From positions 1,736,001 through 1,800,000 of the forward strand of contig NZ_CP017916.1 in assembly GCF_002119525.1 (NCBI RefSeq): a stretch of DNA of 64,000 nucleotides, written 5' to 3'. The stretch is from Vibrio syngnathi (GTDB taxonomy: Bacteria > Pseudomonadota > Gammaproteobacteria > Enterobacterales > Vibrionaceae). Position 1 is the first letter of the stretch. The number at the start of each line of letters is the position of its first letter. The position numbers and the translations under genes are program-made. Shown in pieces: positions 37,607-54,986 of the stretch. The notes below the pieces were generated by a model. It did not search any database. It was given only the letters and a program-made list of their open reading frames with translations, and was not told the origin of the DNA.

Positions 37607-38092
37607 ATGCCTAAAGATCCCGGTTTCACCACAGAATACACCCTCGACAAAACGTTTTTTGCAGAGTGTTATGATCAAACTAGCCTTCCGACTCAATTTC
37701 CAAAAGCCTATTTGAAAGGAATATTGTTTCTTGTTTTTGGTGTGGTTCTACTGGAGTTTGAACTATTACCTAACGGTTACGTTGGTTGGTTCTTTATTGT
37801 TTTGAGTGTGATTGAAGCGTTCAGTGTATATTGCAAGAGAACCTGGTGGTTATGGCGACAAAAAATCAGCTCAGGTGCTGGTAGCAAAGTGGTCTTTACA
37901 GGGGATACTGATGGTGTGAGTTATAAAAACCGCAAAACCACCAATACTATTGCTTGGCGTGACATCGACCAACTTGAACAGACCAATCTCGGCCTTATCC
38001 TTCATATTGGAAAACAGCGTCAATATGTGAGTAAATCTTGTTTAAGCGATGAAGCCATTGCCTTCATGATTGAACAACACGAAGTTTCATAA
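37607..38092 (+). CDS. YcxB-like membrane protein
   Basis: 161 residues. Two hydrophobic helices (about 33-52 and 56-76) sit between an N-terminal cytoplasmic segment beginning with TEYTLDKTFFAECYDQT and a C-terminal domain with FTGDTDGVSYKNRKTTNTIAWRDIDQLEQTNLGLILHI. The C-terminal beta domain matches the YcxB-type plan seen in several small membrane proteins. Function is unknown. It stands alone, with a terminator 53 bases after its stop. Confidence 0.65.
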   Translation: MPKDPGFTTEYTLDKTFFAECYDQTSLPTQFPKAYLKGILFLVFGVVLLEFELLPNGYVGWFFIVLSVIEAFSVYCKRTWWLWRQKISSGAGSKVVFTGDTDGVSYKNRKTTNTIAWRDIDQLEQTNLGLILHIGKQRQYVSKSCLSDEAIAFMIEQHEVS

Positions 38093-38126
38093 ACTTCGTA
38101 AGCTTCGTAAGCTTCGTAAGCTTCGC
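38091..38126. repeat. Four tandem 9-bp repeats after a stop codon
   Basis: AA(A/G)CTTCG(T/C) repeats four times without interruption (38091-38126), directly overlapping the TAA stop of the preceding gene. The unit contains a HindIII-like AAGCTT palindrome. It may be a slipped-strand product. Confidence 0.9.
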
Positions 38127-38618: not shown

Positions 38619-39626
38619 ATGATAAAGCAAAGTTGTACTTTTTTAACGTCACTGTCGCTGCTGCTATCAGCTAACACTTTTGCATACGATCTTGAGATAG
38701 AAGCTTTTGAAGGCGAAGAACTCACACTTTTAAAGAACGCAGAAACGTCTAGCGACAACGAATTGCTAATGCAGGCTGCTAACCTTTTAATTGAAGATTC
38801 AATGTATGAAGAGAACTTACAACGCGGATATCAGTACATGAATCAAGTCGCGGAATCTGGCGAGGTAAAAGCGATGATTACCTTGGCAGATAATTATTAC
38901 TACGAAGAGCAATACGAAAAAGCACTGGCTTGGTACCATCAAGCTGAAACCAGCAAAGACCCTTATGTGCTCTACTCATTAGGCGTAATGTATTTTGATG
39001 GTGAAGGTACACCTGTCGACCTGAAGAAAGGCAACGACTATTACCTAGCTTCTGCAAAAGCGGGTTATTCTGACGCTATGTATCAACTCGCGTTTTCATA
39101 CGATGAAGGTCAAGGCGTCGCTCAAGACTTCTCCAAATCTGCGTATTGGTTTGAGCAATCTGCAAACTTAGGCGACGCAAGTGCCATGTACAACTTGGGT
39201 ATTTCTTACCTAAATGGACAAGGTGTTGAAAAGAGTTGCTCTAAAGCGATGCAATTATTTAGCAACGCCATTGAAGAAGATGAACATACACTTTCTTATG
39301 TGAAGATGGGTGATATTTACTCTTCTACTCGATACAAAAAACCGTGTGGTTTCAAAACGACAGACGCAAAAAAAGCATTAGAGTATTACACTCGCGCCGC
39401 AATGCAGGGCAACGATTATGGTCAATATTCCGTTGGTTACGCCTACCGTAATGGTCACGGTACATGGAGCGATTTTGTTAAAGCGCTAGCATGGTTTGAA
39501 GTCGCACAGGAATACGGAAACTCGGATGCAGAGAAAGAGATAATCGACGTGAAACAGTACATGTCGAAAGAAAACATTGCCGCAGCTGCGCAGCTTAAAG
39601 ACTCTTTAATCGAAGATATCTGGTAA
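38619..39626 (+). CDS. Secreted Sel1-repeat (TPR-like) protein
   Basis: 335 residues. A signal peptide ends around LLLSANTFA. Seven or so Sel1-like repeats follow, recognised by units such as VLYSLGVMYFDGEGTPVDLKKG, AMYQLAFSYDEGQGVAQDFSKSAYWFEQSA and AMYNLGISYLNGQGVEKSCSKAM. These stack into a superhelix that binds partner proteins. Two Cys (about 206 and 242) may pair. It lies next to, but convergent with, the lipoprotein/hydrolase array. Role unknown; Sel1 proteins often act in envelope regulation. Confidence 0.85.
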   Translation: MIKQSCTFLTSLSLLLSANTFAYDLEIEAFEGEELTLLKNAETSSDNELLMQAANLLIEDSMYEENLQRGYQYMNQVAESGEVKAMITLADNYYYEEQYEKALAWYHQAETSKDPYVLYSLGVMYFDGEGTPVDLKKGNDYYLASAKAGYSDAMYQLAFSYDEGQGVAQDFSKSAYWFEQSANLGDASAMYNLGISYLNGQGVEKSCSKAMQLFSNAIEEDEHTLSYVKMGDIYSSTRYKKPCGFKTTDAKKALEYYTRAAMQGNDYGQYSVGYAYRNGHGTWSDFVKALAWFEVAQEYGNSDAEKEIIDVKQYMSKENIAAAAQLKDSLIEDIW

Positions 39627-39710: not shown

Positions 39711-39745
39711 AACTAAGGCCTCACACACACGAGGCCTTAGTTTTA
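39711..39745. terminator. Bidirectional terminator, member of a dispersed family
   Basis: AACTAAGGCCTC / GAGGCCTTAGTT, a perfect 12-bp stem with an 8-base ACAC loop, followed by TTTT. It lies between the Sel1 gene and the convergent hydrolase gene. Its core is shared with hairpins at 45393, 52571, 54906, 56140 and 57393. Confidence 0.9.
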
Positions 39746-39764
39746 TCTATCGAAAGGTTGTCCC

Positions 39765-39863: not shown

Positions 39864-41387
39864 TCAATGGCCTTGACAGAGATTAGTAGGATGAAAACTT
39901 TGAAAAGGTACTGCATAACGTGCCGACACATCATAGCGTCCAGACAAATGCTGAGTGACTAAATACTGACGTTGCTCCTCATTATAAAAGTGTTGTGTTG
40001 CTTCTAGTTCAATAGCATCTCCATCCCCAGCACAAATGAAATAGTCGTCGTCCATATCTCGAAATGCTATTGGGGTTTCATCTACCAATCCATATCTATC
40101 GGTCATCTTTCTTGACCTCCAAATATCTTTAAATGTACCTAGCTCAAAGCGTTTTAAATTTCGCCATTGTACGAACATATAAGTGTCTTGCGAGGGAATC
40201 GATGGAATGTCATTCATTGCCTCGTTCGGGCTTTTACAAGTATCAAACAAAACCACAGCATTGTTCTCAACTCTAAATGGTAATCTATCTTCATCTTGTA
40301 TATAAGAATCCACGTTCCTTTTGAACCAAGAATCACCCTCTGGGCTGAGATAGAAAGAAGGAGACTTTAGGTAAGACCCAAATTCGTCAGTTTTACTTGC
40401 GTCAACAATTTCATAAACAGGATTATCATGAAGTGAGTCATAGCTCGCACTATAATCGAACTCAATTTTAAACAAAAAATCTTCCATCTCGGGTTTAGTA
40501 AGAGACGTGAAAGCCTTATCGACGGAGGCTTTAAGTTTTTCAATAGATTTAGGATGAGTGAGGTAAATAGGAATGAGTCCGTGTCCAGTAATGTCTAATT
40601 TACTCGGTGCTATCGTGGTGTTGGGAGGCGGAACACTGCCTATCCCTGTAAAGTTAAGCAAGTTAATCACAAGGTCTGAGGCGGATAAAATATAATCACT
40701 GTCTGGGCTAAGGGTTGGAGAAGCGGGGGCGATGTGAACGACGCGAATGTTATCGGCACTGTAACCGTATTGAGATGTAACATGCTTGTACGATTCGTTT
40801 ACCCACAAGTTCCCTTGTGAATGCGCGATGTAAATGAGCTTTTTTCCTTTCCACGTAAGAGAGTCATTTAAAAGATGATGCTGCATTCTAGTTTGGCTGG
40901 TTTCGGGGGCATCAACAAGTGAGGCTAGTTCTTTTAAAAATGTCGTGATGGTTGCATTGATGGTTTGGTTTGTGAAGTCGAGAACAAACCCAGCAAACCA
41001 AGTAAAAGTGGCGCTGATTTTTTGGATGATAGCGCTTTTTTGCCGACCGCTCACAATGTCCCAAAAGGCCTCCCACCGGTCGAATTGTTTCTGCTCTAAC
41101 TCGTAAGTTCTTTGGTCAAAGGTTTCAGCAAAATCAGCTAGTACGTTAAGGCCACTTCCGTCAATATAAGAATCGTTGTAGAAAAGCTGGTAATCGACAG
41201 ACTCACCGTTGTATTGGTTGATATCTATAGTGGATTCTATTTTAAATCTCCCTTGTTCGGCTTGCTTTTTGGTTGTTGCAACACCGTTAAAAAAACCGAT
41301 GGTGTAACCTTCAATTTTGCATGAGTTGGCGATTGCATTGAATGGCAGTGAAGCCGCAATCATGAGTAATATTGTTGGCTTATTCAC
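39864..41387 (-). CDS. Secreted serine hydrolase at the end of the lipoprotein array
   Basis: 507 residues. A signal peptide ends around FNAIA (about residue 20), and the mature protein begins CKIEGYTIGFFNGVATT. A nucleophile motif lies in YIAHSQGNLWVNES (Ser190), of alpha/beta-hydrolase type. An amphipathic/hydrophobic region (about 118-150) lies ahead of it. HGLIPIYLTH (about 262) may hold other active-site residues. Start is a GTG that overlaps the stop of lipoprotein copy 1 by 8 bases (41380-41387), so translation is coupled. There is no lipobox. It could be a lipase or peptidoglycan/lipid-active toxin; substrate unknown. Confidence 0.7.
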   Translation of the reverse strand: MNKPTILLMIAASLPFNAIANSCKIEGYTIGFFNGVATTKKQAEQGRFKIESTIDINQYNGESVDYQLFYNDSYIDGSGLNVLADFAETFDQRTYELEQKQFDRWEAFWDIVSGRQKSAIIQKISATFTWFAGFVLDFTNQTINATITTFLKELASLVDAPETSQTRMQHHLLNDSLTWKGKKLIYIAHSQGNLWVNESYKHVTSQYGYSADNIRVVHIAPASPTLSPDSDYILSASDLVINLLNFTGIGSVPPPNTTIAPSKLDITGHGLIPIYLTHPKSIEKLKASVDKAFTSLTKPEMEDFLFKIEFDYSASYDSLHDNPVYEIVDASKTDEFGSYLKSPSFYLSPEGDSWFKRNVDSYIQDEDRLPFRVENNAVVLFDTCKSPNEAMNDIPSIPSQDTYMFVQWRNLKRFELGTFKDIWRSRKMTDRYGLVDETPIAFRDMDDDYFICAGDGDAIELEATQHFYNEEQRQYLVTQHLSGRYDVSARYAVPFQSFHPTNLCQGH

Positions 41388-41979
41388 AGTACTGTGCCTC
41401 TGCTTTTAGAGAGGTACTTACGGAACCATCTAATAGGTGGTTATAAGCCAAGTAAGTCATAGTGCGGGCTTTTGTATTGTAAGTGAGTACATCAACGGTT
41501 CTTCCTGTATTTATATTGTCATCAACATCAATACCAACAAATTTCTTACAAGCGAGAATTTTGTTATATTTATGGCTAATCGCTAGTGCCTTTTTTATAT
41601 TGGCGTTATTCTTTTCACTCCAGTCGTGATAAAGACTTTCTTGTGCCTGCCGAGCTTCTTGTTTTAAGGATTTTCGGACTGGCTCGGTCACTTCTAGCGC
41701 ATCAATAAACGCCTCAATGTCGTCGCGGATACCGTCTTTGTTTGCATCCGCACCAGTAAGAGAGTCACTACGGTCAAGCATGGGTTCAAAACGCTCATAT
41801 AGCAGCCTAAACTGATCATCAATTGTCTCTTGTGCCTTTAATTCCGCAACTAGCTCAGGTGTTTTCTCGATGTGAGATATGACACTCGGTTGTTCCACTA
41901 CAGCAGCGTTTGGCTCATTCGATTCTTTGCACCCCACAATTAACATCACTGCTAACGTGTAGACTAACCCATTTTTCAT
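41380..41979 (-). CDS. EF-hand-loop lipoprotein, array copy 1
   Basis: 199 residues. Signal peptide with a lipobox ending in VGC (Cys17), so probably a membrane-anchored lipoprotein. The core has the 12-residue loop DANKDGIRDDIE, matching the EF-hand/dockerin Ca2+ pattern at positions 1, 3, 5, 6, 9 and 12. LLYERFEPMLDRSDSLTG precedes it and TYNTKARTMTYLAYNHLLDGSVST follows. Two Cys (ACKKFVG and the terminal YCE) may form a disulfide. It is the copy nearest the secreted hydrolase, whose GTG start it overlaps. Function unknown. Confidence 0.85.
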   Translation of the reverse strand: MKNGLVYTLAVMLIVGCKESNEPNAAVVEQPSVISHIEKTPELVAELKAQETIDDQFRLLYERFEPMLDRSDSLTGADANKDGIRDDIEAFIDALEVTEPVRKSLKQEARQAQESLYHDWSEKNNANIKKALAISHKYNKILACKKFVGIDVDDNINTGRTVDVLTYNTKARTMTYLAYNHLLDGSVSTSLKAEAQYCE

Positions 41980-42170
41980 TTTTGTTTCCCCTAGTATTTC
42001 AAATAGTTACCAGAGAATACGGACAAATTAACTCACTGAATAATAAAGAGTTTGCATAGGGACATAACAAACAAAAATAGAAAGTTAGATGTTGTTACCC
42101 TCCGCCTTTTCTGTGTTTCAAAAGAGGGTAAAAATATCAATTAGGGGGGAGGTTTGAACGGGTGACTAGC

Positions 42171-42770
42171 TTATTCACAGTATTTCTCCTCAGCAGGAAG
42201 GAGTGTACTTACAGATCCATCTTGTAAATGATTATAAGCTAAGTACGCCATAGTACGGGCTTTGGTGTTGTAGGTGAGAGATGTGATTGTGTTGGAGGTG
42301 TTTATCCTGTCATCCACATCAATACCAACAAATTCCTTACAAGCAATGACTTTGCCGTATTTATCTGAAATATATAGAGCTTTTTTGATATTAGCGTCGG
42401 TCTTTTGTGAAAAATCGTGATAGAGGTTTTCTTGTGTGTAATGGGCATTTTGCTTTAAGGCTTTTCGGACTGGCTCGGTCACTTCTAACGCATCGATAAA
42501 TGCCTCAATGTCGTCGCGGATACCATCATTGTTTGCATCAGTACCAGTAAGAGAATCGCTGCGGTCGAGCATGGGTTCAAAACGCTCATATAGCAGCCTA
42601 AACTGGTCATCGATTGTCGGTTGTGCCTTTAACTCTGCGGTTAGTTCAGGTGTTTTCTCTATGTTTGATATGACAATCGGTTGTTCCACTCCATTTTCAA
42701 TTGCCTTATTAGATCCTTTACATCCTACAATTAACATCACCGATAAAGTGCAAACTAACAAATTTTTCAT
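42171..42770 (-). CDS. EF-hand-loop lipoprotein, array copy 2
   Basis: 199 residues, the most divergent of the five. The signal and lipobox are MLIVGC, but the segment after the Cys reads KGSNKAIENGVEQP instead of the shared KESNEPNAAVVEQP. The Ca2+ loop is DANNDGIRDDIE. The region ACKEFVGIDVDDRINTS and end EEKYCE differ from the neighbours. It starts 791 bases from copy 1 in the repeat register. A non-coding hairpin TACCCTC/GAGGGTA lies between the copies. Confidence 0.85.
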   Translation of the reverse strand: MKNLLVCTLSVMLIVGCKGSNKAIENGVEQPIVISNIEKTPELTAELKAQPTIDDQFRLLYERFEPMLDRSDSLTGTDANNDGIRDDIEAFIDALEVTEPVRKALKQNAHYTQENLYHDFSQKTDANIKKALYISDKYGKVIACKEFVGIDVDDRINTSNTITSLTYNTKARTMAYLAYNHLQDGSVSTLLPAEEKYCE

Positions 42771-42961
42771 TTTTGTTTCCCTAGTATTTCAAATAGATAC
42801 CAGAGAATACGGACAAATTAACTCACTGAATAATAAAGAGTTTGCATAGGGGTATAACAAACAAAAATAGGAAATTAGATGTTGTTACCCTCCGCCTTTT
42901 CTGTGTTTCAAAAGAGGGTTAAAATATCAATTAAGGGGGAGATTTGAACGGGGTGACTAGC

Positions 42962-43561
42962 TTATTCACAGTACTGTGCCTCTGCTTTTAGAGAGGTACT
43001 TACGGAACCATCTAATAGGTGGCTATAAGCAAGGTAGGCCATGGTGCGTGCTTTGGTGTTGTAGGTGAGAGCTCTAGTGGTTTTTCCTGTATTTGTTCTA
43101 TCTCTGACTGGAATGCCAACAAACTTCTTACAGGCGATAACTTTGTTATATTTATTACCCATCGCCATTGCCTTGTCGATATTGGCTTTAGTCTTTTTCG
43201 AGAAGTCGTGGTACAGGTTTTCTTGTGAGTAGCGAGCGTTTTGTTTTAAGGATTTTCGGACTGGCTCGGTCACTTCTAGCGCATTAATAAACGCCTCAAT
43301 GTCGTCGCGGATACCATCGTTGTTTGCATCCGTACCAGTAAGAGAGTCACTGCGGTCAAGCATGGGTTCAAAACGCTCATAAAGCAGCCTAAGTTGATCA
43401 TCAATTGTCTCTTGTGCCTTTAATTCCGCAACTAGCTCAGGTGTTTTATCTATGTGAGAGATGACACTCGGTTGTTCCACTACAGCAGCGTTTGGCTCAT
43501 TCGATTCTTTGCACCCCACGATTATCATCACGGCTAATGCGCAGACTAACCCATTTTTCAT
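42962..43561 (-). CDS. EF-hand-loop lipoprotein, array copy 3
   Basis: 199 residues, identical in translation to copy 5 although copy 4 lies between them. The lipobox is MIIVGC and the Ca2+ loop DANNDGIRDDIE. FVGIPVRDRTNTGKTTRALTY distinguishes copies 3 and 5 from the others. Such identity of non-adjacent members points to recent duplication of a two-gene block or gene conversion. Same repeat period of 791 bases. Confidence 0.85.
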   Translation of the reverse strand: MKNGLVCALAVMIIVGCKESNEPNAAVVEQPSVISHIDKTPELVAELKAQETIDDQLRLLYERFEPMLDRSDSLTGTDANNDGIRDDIEAFINALEVTEPVRKSLKQNARYSQENLYHDFSKKTKANIDKAMAMGNKYNKVIACKKFVGIPVRDRTNTGKTTRALTYNTKARTMAYLAYSHLLDGSVSTSLKAEAQYCE

Positions 43562-43752
43562 TTCTGTATCCCCTAGTATTTCAAATAGTTACCAGAGAAT
43601 ACGGACAAATTAACTCACTGAATAATAAAGAGTTTGCATAGGGGTATAACAAACAAAAATAGGAAATTAGATGTTGTTACCCTCCGCCTTTTCTGTGTTT
43701 CAAAAGAGGGTTAAAATATCAATTAAGGGGGAGGTTTGAACGGGTGACTAGC

Positions 43753-44352
43753 TTATTCACAGAATTTTGCCTCCGCAGCAAGGAGCGTACTTACGGAACC
43801 ATTTAATAGGTGATTGTAAGCCAAGTAAGTCATAGTGCGGGCTTTGGTATTGTAAGTGAGCGCATCAACGGTTCTTCCTGTATTGGTTATATCTCTTACA
43901 GGAATACCAACAAACTCTTTACAAGCGAGTACTTTGTCGTATTTGTATGAAATGTCGAGTGCTTTTCTGATGTTCGCATCGGTCTTTGCATTCCAGTCGT
44001 GATAAAGACTTTCTTGTGCCTGCCGAGCCTCTTGTTTTAAGGCTTTTCGGACTGGCTCGGTCACTTCTAACGCATCGATAAACGCCTCAATGTCATCGCG
44101 GATACCATCATTGTTTGCATCCGTACCAGTAAGAGAGTCGCTGCGGTCAAGCATGGGTTCAAAACGCTCATATAGAAGCCTAAGTTGATCATCAATTGTT
44201 TCTTGTGCCTTTAATTCCGCGACTAGCTCAGGTGTTTTCTCTATGTGAGAGATGACACTCGGTTGTTCCACTACAGCAGCGTTTGGCTCATTCGATTCTT
44301 TGCACCCCACAATTAACATCACTGCTAACGTGTAGACTAACCCATTTTTCAT
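43753..44352 (-). CDS. EF-hand-loop lipoprotein, array copy 4
   Basis: 199 residues from the ATG at 44352, chosen to match the conserved start of the other copies; an in-frame ATG at 44370 would add six residues (MLGGTE). The N-terminal 130 residues are close to copy 1. After that FVGIPVRDITNTGRTVDALTY resembles copies 1 and 3 by turns, and the C-terminus is LLAAEAKFCE. This mosaic pattern suggests recombination among copies. The lipobox and Ca2+ loop (DANNDGIRDDIE) are intact. Confidence 0.85.
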   Translation of the reverse strand: MKNGLVYTLAVMLIVGCKESNEPNAAVVEQPSVISHIEKTPELVAELKAQETIDDQLRLLYERFEPMLDRSDSLTGTDANNDGIRDDIEAFIDALEVTEPVRKALKQEARQAQESLYHDWNAKTDANIRKALDISYKYDKVLACKEFVGIPVRDITNTGRTVDALTYNTKARTMTYLAYNHLLNGSVSTLLAAEAKFCE

Positions 44353-44544
44353 TTCTGTACCCCCTAGCATTTCAAATAGTTACCAGAGAATACGGACAAA
44401 TTAACTCACTGAATAATAAAGAGTTTGCATAGGGGCATAACAAACAAAAATAGGAAGTTAGATGTTCTTACCCTCCGCCATTTCTGTGCTTCAAAAAAGG
44501 GGGGAAATATCAATTAAGGGGGAGATCTGAACGGGGTGACTAGC

Positions 44545-45144
44545 TTATTCACAGTACTGTGCCTCTGCTTTTAGAGAGGTACTTACGGAACCATCTAATA
44601 GGTGGCTATAAGCAAGGTAGGCCATGGTGCGTGCTTTGGTGTTGTAGGTGAGAGCTCTAGTGGTTTTTCCTGTATTTGTTCTATCTCTGACTGGAATGCC
44701 AACAAACTTCTTACAGGCGATAACTTTGTTATATTTATTACCCATCGCCATTGCCTTGTCGATATTGGCTTTAGTCTTTTTCGAGAAGTCGTGGTACAGG
44801 TTTTCTTGTGAGTAGCGAGCGTTTTGTTTTAAGGATTTTCGGACTGGCTCGGTCACTTCTAGCGCATTAATAAACGCCTCAATGTCGTCGCGGATACCAT
44901 CGTTGTTTGCATCCGTACCAGTAAGAGAGTCACTGCGGTCAAGCATGGGTTCAAAACGCTCATAAAGCAGCCTAAGTTGATCATCAATTGTCTCTTGTGC
45001 CTTTAATTCCGCAACTAGCTCAGGTGTTTTATCTATGTGAGAGATGACACTCGGTTGTTCCACTACAGCAGCGTTTGGCTCATTCGATTCTTTGCACCCC
45101 ACGATTATCATCACGGCTAATGCGCAGACTAACCCATTTTTCAT
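44545..45144 (-). CDS. EF-hand-loop lipoprotein, array copy 5
   Basis: 199 residues, first in transcription order and identical in sequence to copy 3. It has the same signal peptide, lipobox MIIVGC, Ca2+ loop DANNDGIRDDIE and paired Cys. The DNA upstream of its start continues the repeat for about 185 bases (to about 45330), then becomes unrelated. The repeat array thus ends here. The 5' flank should contain the operon promoter, but each copy also has TATTAT-like sequence about 80 bases upstream. Confidence 0.85.
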   Translation of the reverse strand: MKNGLVCALAVMIIVGCKESNEPNAAVVEQPSVISHIDKTPELVAELKAQETIDDQLRLLYERFEPMLDRSDSLTGTDANNDGIRDDIEAFINALEVTEPVRKSLKQNARYSQENLYHDFSKKTKANIDKAMAMGNKYNKVIACKKFVGIPVRDRTNTGKTTRALTYNTKARTMAYLAYSHLLDGSVSTSLKAEAQYCE

Positions 45145-45392
45145 TTCTGTATCCCCTAGTATTTCAAATAGTTACCAGAGAATACGGACAAATTAACTCA
45201 CTGAATAATAAAGAGTTTGCATAGGGACATAACAAACAAAAATAGAAAGTTAGATGTTGTTACCCTCCGCCTTTTCTGTGTTTCAAAAAAGGGGGAAAAT
45301 ATCAATTAAGGGGGAGATTTGAACGGGGGGTTGGCAGTATATTATCACGAGCTTCTGGCCAAGCTATTTCGCTCGCTAAACAACACATAAAA

Positions 45393-45420
45393 AAGGCCTC
45401 GCACACGCGAGGCCTTAGTT
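45393..45420 (-). terminator. Terminator of the dispersed GGCCTCGC family
   Basis: AAGGCCTCGC / GCGAGGCCTT with an ACAC loop (45393-45416), an A-run to its left and TAGTTTTATCTA to its right. It serves the following minus-strand gene (stop at 45496). No gene is seen between 45331 and 45392, or in the bases just before 45496. Confidence 0.85.
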
Positions 45421-45495
45421 TTATCTACAGAGCAGCTTATTCGCAACCCATTATTCAATTAACCAATCAACCGCTCTAAACCAACTGAATCACTC

Positions 45496-46501: not shown

Positions 46502-46643
46502 CCCGTACATGACTGAAAAAAGAACGACTGCAACAAGAACAACTGCGAAAGGAACGACTGAACTCTTAATCGCCTGAACTTCACTGATCTTTTCTTAAAA
46601 CAAGCACGTAACTGACTTCACTTTCTAAGGAATGGACACTGTT

Positions 46644-52570: not shown

Positions 52571-52600
52571 AAGGCCTCGCACACGCGAGGCCTTAGTTTT
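52571..52600 (+). terminator. Terminator of the GGCCTCGC family (after DUF3360)
   Basis: AAGGCCTCGC / GCGAGGCCTT with an ACAC loop, preceded by an A-run and followed by TAGTTTTATCTA. It ends the DUF3360 transcript. The whole unit recurs elsewhere in the window. Confidence 0.85.
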
Positions 52601-52644
52601 ATCTATCGAACGGTTACAGCTAATCTTTATCAACGGCAACGCCC

Positions 52645-54905: not shown

Positions 54906-54935
54906 AAGGCCTCGCACACGCGAAGCCTTAGTTTT
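54906..54935. terminator. Terminator of the GGCCTCGC family (between convergent genes)
   Basis: AAGGCCTCGC ACAC GCGAAGCCTT, with one C-A mismatch, then TAGTTTTACTGA. It lies between the GST gene and the convergent alpha/beta-hydrolase gene and can stop both. Confidence 0.75.
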
Positions 54936-54986
54936 ACTGAGTTTCAACGAACAAGCAGCGAAGAAATTTACGTTCGTAAAACCAAA

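What the first reader, a model, noticed from the sequence alone, without database searches (positions are those of the whole stretch)
39864..45330. Tandem array of five EF-hand-loop lipoproteins coupled to a secreted serine hydrolase
Five 791-792-bp repeats each carry a lipoprotein gene with a 12-residue Ca2+-type loop (DANxDGIRDDIE). The last copy overlaps by 8 bases the GTG start of a secreted protein with an AHSQG nucleophile. The layout resembles effector/immunity clusters (several immunity copies, one toxin), or an enzyme with a dosage-amplified partner or chaperone. The order (lipoproteins first, enzyme last) and the signal peptide on the enzyme differ from typical type VI lipase effectors. 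I know of no described system with this architecture, and this is my best candidate for an undescribed one.
Basis: partly seen in the sequence, partly recalled or inferred. Interest (0 to 1): 0.85.

Follow-up and report, generated by a model that had tools for sequence, protein, structure and literature searches.

The report
Secreted hydrolase with lipoprotein partner array
A Vibrio chromosome carries a gene for a secreted fat-splitting-type enzyme behind five tandem copies of a partner lipoprotein, and the extra copies resemble versions found in other strains, which looks like a stockpile of antidotes against rivals' versions of the enzyme.

Summary
In detail: five intact 199-residue lipoprotein (LP) genes, period 791/792, the last overlapping by 8 bp a GTG-started, signal-peptide-bearing alpha/beta hydrolase (HYD). 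LP and HYD form a pair without a Pfam or NCBIfam family, found mostly in Proteobacteria. An LP homologue or remnant adjoins HYD at 80 of 80 scan loci and in 21 of 22 HYD-bearing Vibrio genomes; no HYD was found in 14 of 34 LP-bearing ones. The LP C-half plus the HYD N-terminus (to about residue 62) form one hypervariable block across the gene junction, seen in Vibrio and again in three Hydrogenophaga loci. The five copies are four old alleles: copy 1 adjoins the window's HYD; copies 4 and 3/5 match LPs that adjoin HYD in other Vibrio species, copy 2 more loosely. Elsewhere old LPs survive beside HYDs truncated before the catalytic serine, next to a new LP-HYD pair. I read this as a polymorphic effector-immunity-like pair with an immunity repertoire (0.5). 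A dedicated chaperone, cofactor or tether is the main rival, supported by two natural fusions and by partners with chitin-binding modules instead of lipid anchors. Toxicity, binding and the literature could not be tested.

The parts
39864..41387 (-). HYD: secreted alpha/beta hydrolase, 507 aa, GTG start, Sec-type signal peptide; core about residues 23-300 with a helical insertion at about 81-180, C-terminal beta-rich domain at 305-507
40812..40826 (-). AHSQG nucleophile elbow, residues 188-192, Ser190
   Evidence: A188 H189 S190 G192 N193 in 108 of 108 rows, Q191 in 107
40581..40583 (-). His269, candidate catalytic histidine (Asp238 or Asp265 the candidate acid)
   Evidence: H269 108 of 108, D238 107 of 108, D265 102 of 108; roles inferred
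41380..41979 (-). LP copy 1, the copy adjacent to HYD; its end overlaps the HYD start by 8 bp
   Evidence: residues 108-184 100% identical to P0144 (V. atlanticus)
42171..42770 (-). LP copy 2; C-half of a group with V. chagasii, V. tasmaniensis and V. atlanticus LPs
   Evidence: 93.7% DNA identity to the single LP at the same locus in G239 (V. tasmaniensis 1F-187 by equal contig length); residues 108-184 97% to V. chagasii P0128, P0136, P0139; branch not resolved in the tree
42962..43561 (-). LP copy 3; V. chagasii / V. splendidus type
   Evidence: 91.2% DNA identity to the LP adjoining HYD in G085; clade of six rows, support 100/97
43753..44352 (-). LP copy 4; type of G128 and G183
   Evidence: 98.5% and 96.8% DNA identity to the LPs adjoining HYD in G128 and G183; clade support 99/99
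44545..45144 (-). LP copy 5, identical to copy 3
   Evidence: 100% over 600 nt
41200..41679 (-). hypervariable block: LP1 C-half + HYD signal peptide + HYD residues to about 62
   Evidence: 120-nt windows over 8 Vibrio LP-HYD units: mean identity 69-79% inside, 88-94% before it and 86-96% after it
41713..41748 (-). EF-hand-like loop of LP1, residues 78-89 (DANKDGIRDDIE)
   Evidence: D78, R85, D86, D87 in 103 of 103 rows; position 80 N/D 101, position 82 N/D 102, position 89 E/D 96 of 103
41980..42170 (-). spacer upstream of LP1; the four homologous spacers are 42771-42961, 43562-43752, 44353-44544 and 45145-45335
   Evidence: 91-97% identical to each other

Best explanation
LP and HYD are an obligate, co-specific pair. 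Shown by computation: conserved linkage, one hypervariable block joining the LP C-half to the HYD N-terminus, and LP arrays built of different alleles. Inferred: HYD is a lipase/esterase-like enzyme exported by Sec and probably released; the lipoprotein, probably in the outer membrane, binds it through its helical C-half at the helix that follows the oxyanion-type motif (HYD residues 40-54) and keeps it from harming the producing cell. Because Vibrio lineages carry differently keyed enzymes, cells gain from keeping LP alleles that match other strains' enzymes. The array would then be one self antidote (copy 1) plus three non-self antidotes in four copies (2, 3 = 5, 4), gathered by recombination through conserved LP N-half, spacer and HYD core.
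For: (1) LP, whole or as a remnant, adjoins HYD at 80 of 80 scan loci and in 21 of 22 Vibrio genomes with a HYD hit; the exception is a 34-residue C-terminal fragment. Of 34 Vibrio genomes with an LP hit, 15 have no HYD hit; one of these (G202) has a broken HYD by profile, leaving 14. (2) Among 8 Vibrio units mean identity falls from 88-94% to 69-79% from LP nt 301 to HYD codon ~62 and returns to 90-96% until the HYD 3' end. In Hydrogenophaga L155, L156 and L158 old and new units fall to 34-65% there, between windows of 90-100% on both sides. (3) Over 17 Vibrio-type pairs LP C-half distance has partial r 0.66 with HYD 39-62 (0 of 300 permutations); the LP N-part has 0.02 with that segment. (4) Copies 3/5 and 4 group with LPs that adjoin HYD in other genomes, supports 100/97 and 99/99. 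C-half dS between copies is 0.48-2.13 in the pairs listed, against 0.16-0.30 for whole HYD between the window and six close units: old alleles. (5) Old LPs persist beside truncated HYD, with a new LP-HYD next: L155, L156, L158 and a P. damselae plasmid (L202). (6) The extra whole genes are LPs: none of 115 loci had two intact HYDs. All five window LPs are open.
Against: Two natural fusions place the LP domain and HYD in one chain (P0065, 752 aa; L195, 793 aa), which makes little sense for an antidote. In two distant Vibrio-genus loci the partner has no lipobox and carries two CBM5/12 modules, so it is probably secreted. HYD has only a Sec signal: no route into rivals is visible. LP dN/dS is 0.12-0.41 in the pairs listed, so no positive selection. 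The variable block is contiguous DNA, so covariation may partly be joint transfer; over all 80 pairs it is weak (r 0.17 for HYD 39-62) and stronger for HYD 111-135 (0.35). In the P. damselae plasmids only part of the LP C-half varies and the HYD N-terminus hardly does (87-100%); in L158 the old and new HYD diverge again beyond the conserved windows. Loci with HYD broken and LP kept (6, one of them with a stop in LP) against the reverse (2 after inspection: L146, L152) do not clearly exceed what gene length predicts. Persistence of old LPs may be neutral. Some orphan-LP hits are weak (E 1e-7 to 1e-4).
Confidence: 0.5

Rival explanations
1. LP is a dedicated folding/secretion chaperone or activating subunit of HYD, a lipase-foldase-like pair of unrelated sequence; the array is a by-product of allele exchange.
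For: Near-universal linkage and co-specificity; all-helical partner model, pLDDT mostly 92-98 from residue 31 on; natural fusions P0065 and L195; intact HYD without any LP practically absent.
Against: A cell with one HYD has no use for chaperone alleles keyed to other HYDs, yet four copies are kept open here, and two LPs of different C-half type appear to share a contig in three other strains (contig lengths with the tree; inferred). Intact LPs occur without any HYD nearby. No PF03280 (Lif) match for the five window LPs at E up to 1.
Confidence: 0.3
2. LP is a tether: its N-terminus (lipid anchor, transmembrane segment, CBM5/12 or PKD/Ig-like domain) holds the secreted HYD at a chosen surface, and the EF-hand-like domain is the docking module.
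For: N-terminal parts vary while the docking domain is kept: CBM5/12 (E 1.6e-11 and 1.9e-12), PKD-type and weaker Ig-like matches; fusions.
Against: Does not explain allele stacking, displaced arrays or orphan LPs.
Confidence: 0.12
3. The extra copies are neutral leftovers of recombination at a hot spot and have no function.
For: Copies 3 and 5 are identical and the spacers 91-97% alike, showing recent copying; broken LP copies exist in L068 and L125.
Against: Five of five window copies are intact; arrays recur (10 of 80 scan loci have more than one LP ORF).
Confidence: 0.08

Closest known systems
Orphan immunity-gene arrays beside type VI effectors in Vibrio cholerae (recalled; the paper could not be opened)
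   Same: One active effector, several immunity alleles, older immunity genes kept beside effector remnants
   Different: Enzyme has a Sec signal peptide; no type VI feature among the three flanking genes scanned; partner gene comes first in Vibrio; the variable part is the partner's C-half plus the enzyme's N-terminus
CDI / Rhs polymorphic toxin-immunity modules (recalled)
   Same: A hypervariable block crosses the toxin-immunity gene junction between conserved flanks
   Different: Mirror image: the block covers the end of the partner gene and the start of the enzyme gene; the catalytic core is conserved
Lipase-specific foldases (Lif, PF03280; LipA-LipB) (recalled)
   Same: All-helical, membrane-anchored, specific partner of a secreted alpha/beta hydrolase in an operon
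   Different: No PF03280 match; mostly lipid-anchored, at times multi-copy and allelic, found without the enzyme
Cutinases / minimal lipases (e.g. 1cuz, 1i6w)
   Different: 14-16% identity; extra helical insertion and C-terminal beta-rich domain; no Pfam match at E up to 1

Membership tests
Effector-immunity pair | tight genetic linkage of the two genes | tested here: met
   80 of 80 scan loci (six of these are also among the Vibrio-genus loci); 21 of 22 Vibrio genomes; class sample: LP adjacent or fused in 4 of 5 non-own genomes with a HYD hit
Effector-immunity pair | allele-matched specificity segments | tested here: inconclusive
   hypervariable block and covariation in Vibrio-type pairs, weak over all pairs; joint transfer not excluded; binding not tested
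Effector-immunity pair | effector toxic and neutralised by its partner | not testable with these tools
   needs expression in a laboratory strain
Immunity-gene array by effector displacement | old immunity-type genes kept beside effector remnants | tested here: met
   L155, L156, L158, L202; no remnant found in the window itself
Type VI lipase effectors (Tle) | Tle-type Pfam domain; no Sec signal peptide (criterion recalled) | tested here: not met
   no Pfam family at E up to 1 for HYD; hydrophobic signal peptide in HYD
Type VI lipase effectors (Tle) | VgrG, PAAR or Hcp nearby | tested here: inconclusive
   the three flanking genes scanned are Sel1, unmatched and YcxB; other loci not scanned for this
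Lipase-specific foldase (PF03280) | match to the family profile | tested here: not met
   absent from the Pfam lists of the five window LPs at E up to 1
EF-hand | ligand-spaced 12-residue loop | tested here: met
   positions 1, 3, 5, 9 and 12 are D, N or E in at least 96 of 103 rows
EF-hand | helix-loop-helix | tested here: not met
   in the model helix 53-67 ends 10 residues before the loop; only the exiting helix 86-94 adjoins it
Alpha/beta hydrolase | fold plus nucleophile elbow and His | tested here: met

The most novel reading that the evidence does not exclude
A new class of interbacterial self/non-self system that needs only Sec export: a secreted polymorphic lipase-like enzyme keyed by its N-terminal helix, and allele-specific outer-membrane lipoproteins that cells collect in arrays as immunity to other strains' enzymes, with the specificity cassette spanning the immunity-effector gene junction in mirror image to CDI and Rhs.
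Probability: 0.35. Interest if true: 0.88.

Novelty: new variant of a known kind. Interest (0 to 1): 0.72.

Why it matters
The pair is widespread (Vibrionaceae, Comamonadaceae, Pseudomonas, Marinobacter, Acinetobacter, Ferrimonas, Campylobacteraceae and others; also conjugative plasmids), yet HYD and LP match no curated family here, and many LP homologues are named 'chromosome partitioning protein ParA' in public records. If the immunity reading holds, it adds a Sec-exported polymorphic antagonism system with a sharp, testable specificity segment. If the chaperone reading holds, it is a lipase-partner family with unusually strong allelic diversity, useful for making such enzymes.
Full report
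Observation. The five LP genes and the overlapping HYD gene are present as described. Spacing is 791, 791, 791 and 792. Copies 3 and 5 are identical over 600 nt; other gene pairs are 77-88% identical while the spacers are 91-97% identical. The searches found five LPs and one HYD in the genome. All copies carry a lipobox and the 12-residue loop.

Linkage. A scan of GTDB species genomes with the HYD alignment gave 107 relatives, of which 80 were kept. At all 80 an LP homologue adjoins HYD: upstream in 63, downstream in 16 (Comamonadaceae-type loci and one Polyangiaceae MAG), and in one (L152) as a remnant inside the HYD frame (in L103 and L135 HYD runs to the contig end; in L145 and L146 the LP is truncated). 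Of 227 genomes of the genus, 22 have a HYD hit and 34 an LP hit. In 21 of the 22 an LP adjoins HYD; the other is a 34-residue HYD fragment. Of the 34, 15 have no HYD hit; one of them, G202, has a broken HYD by profile, and 10 of the other 14 had their LP neighbourhoods read without finding HYD. In a class-wide sample of 321 genomes, five genomes besides the window's own have HYD: LP is adjacent in three, fused in one (G282), and not found upstream in one (G278), whose downstream side is off the contig. Of 72,556 plasmid records, 16 hold HYD and 13 hold LP, conjugative ones among them.

Copy number. 10 of the 80 scan loci have more than one LP ORF, up to five in L147. By (115 loci after dropping six duplicates): 83 intact HYD with intact LP, 6 broken HYD with LP, 18 LP only, 4 labelled HYD only (two of them by threshold), 4 other. 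No locus has two intact HYDs.

Hypervariable block. Aligning the LP-HYD unit of eight Vibrio genomes in 120-nt windows, mean pairwise identity is 88-94% in the LP N-part, 69-79% from LP nt 301 to about HYD codon 62, then 90-96% in most of HYD, with 86-88% at its 3' end. Three Hydrogenophaga loci (L155, L156, L158) each hold an old LP with a truncated HYD next to a new LP-HYD. Comparing old with new, identity reaches 90-100% in the LP N-half around the loop (lower at the very start in L155 and L158), falls to 34-65% over the LP C-half and HYD N-terminus, and returns to 94-100% in the HYD core; in L158 it drops again after two windows. In the two P. damselae plasmids only part of the LP C-half varies (69-82%) and the HYD N-terminus is 87-100% alike. 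In the HYD model the variable segment is helix 40-54, directly after the first core strand. Over 17 Vibrio-type pairs LP C-half distance has partial correlation 0.66 with HYD 39-62, 0.40 with 63-85, and -0.36 to 0.15 with the eight later segments; the LP N-part correlates instead with HYD 86-110 (0.50) and 271-300 (0.40). Over all 80 pairs of that call the effect is weak and not confined to that segment. Joint transfer of contiguous DNA can give such covariation, so it supports but does not prove contact.

Alleles in the window array. Over residues 108-184 copy 4 is identical to the LPs adjoining HYD in G128 and G183; copies 3/5 group with V. chagasii and V. splendidus LPs (100/97); copy 1 is identical to P0144 from V. 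atlanticus; copy 2 is 97% identical to V. chagasii LPs, its branch not resolved. By residues 20-104 the copies have other nearest relatives, so halves have been exchanged. C-half dS between copies is 0.48-2.13 in the pairs listed, against 0.16-0.30 for whole HYD between the window and six close units: the alleles predate the array. LP dN/dS is 0.12-0.41 in the pairs listed. By shared contig lengths, three other strains (V. chagasii P0122/P0136, V. splendidus P0132/P0142, V. atlanticus P0141/P0144) appear to hold two LPs of different types (inferred). The same locus in G239 has one LP, nearest to copy 2.

Displacement. In L155, L156, L158 and P. damselae pdp3 (L202) the order is old LP, truncated HYD, new LP, intact HYD; in pPHDD1 (L201) both HYDs are truncated. 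These truncated HYDs end before the catalytic serine. This is the pattern recalled for type VI effector replacement that leaves immunity genes behind. The window array itself shows no HYD remnant.

Mechanism. Shown: near-universal pairing and a shared variable block. Inferred: LP binds HYD near the active site; it protects the producer; extra alleles protect against neighbours. Against this, two fusions (P0065, a single database sequence; L195) put LP and HYD in one chain, some distant partners show no lipobox (L197, L198, L199, by eye), and two carry CBM5/12 modules. These suggest that the older role of the domain is to fold, regulate or place the enzyme. A protective inhibitor that began as a dedicated partner would reconcile both sets of facts; I hold immunity at 0.5, chaperone or cofactor at 0.3.

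Limits. No toxicity, binding or localisation data. Only single-chain models were possible, so the proposed interface was not tested. Literature tools failed, so novelty in print is unchecked.

Noticed in passing
window 39715-39759, 45393-45427, 52571-52615, 54906-54936: A terminator-like dispersed repeat (90-94% identity to the copy downstream of HYD) occurs on both sides of the LP-HYD module and twice more in the window; the module may have entered between two such repeats.
   Followed up: partly
window 38619-39626 (+): Exported Sel1-repeat protein convergent with HYD, with a like-starting 335-aa ORF at the same place in L057 and none seen in the listed neighbourhoods of the other HYD loci (by eye); Sel1 proteins serve as immunity in some other lipase-effector systems (recalled).
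   Followed up: partly
LP homologues, e.g. P0122-P0240: Public records name many LP homologues 'chromosome partitioning protein ParA', apparently a mistaken name: no ParA-type match among the Pfam hits of the five window LPs or the NCBIfam hits of two of them.
   Followed up: no
L073:7254-8054, G004 locus L032: Partner proteins with two CBM5/12 chitin-binding modules and no lipobox beside distant HYDs.
   Followed up: partly
L084/L085 and L086/L087: Orphan LPs sit in a like gene neighbourhood in two genomes each (L086/L087 beside what look like pilus-assembly genes, by eye), as if kept as host genes.
   Followed up: no
HYD C-terminus, e.g. L065 versus L066: Two HYDs of one genome, V. pectenicida (plasmid and chromosome), share the N-terminal core but the chromosomal one matches the window's HYD only to residue 298; the C-terminus also varies across the family.
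   Followed up: partly
window 38082-38125 and 46511-46560: Short tandem repeats of 9 and 15 bp.
   Followed up: no
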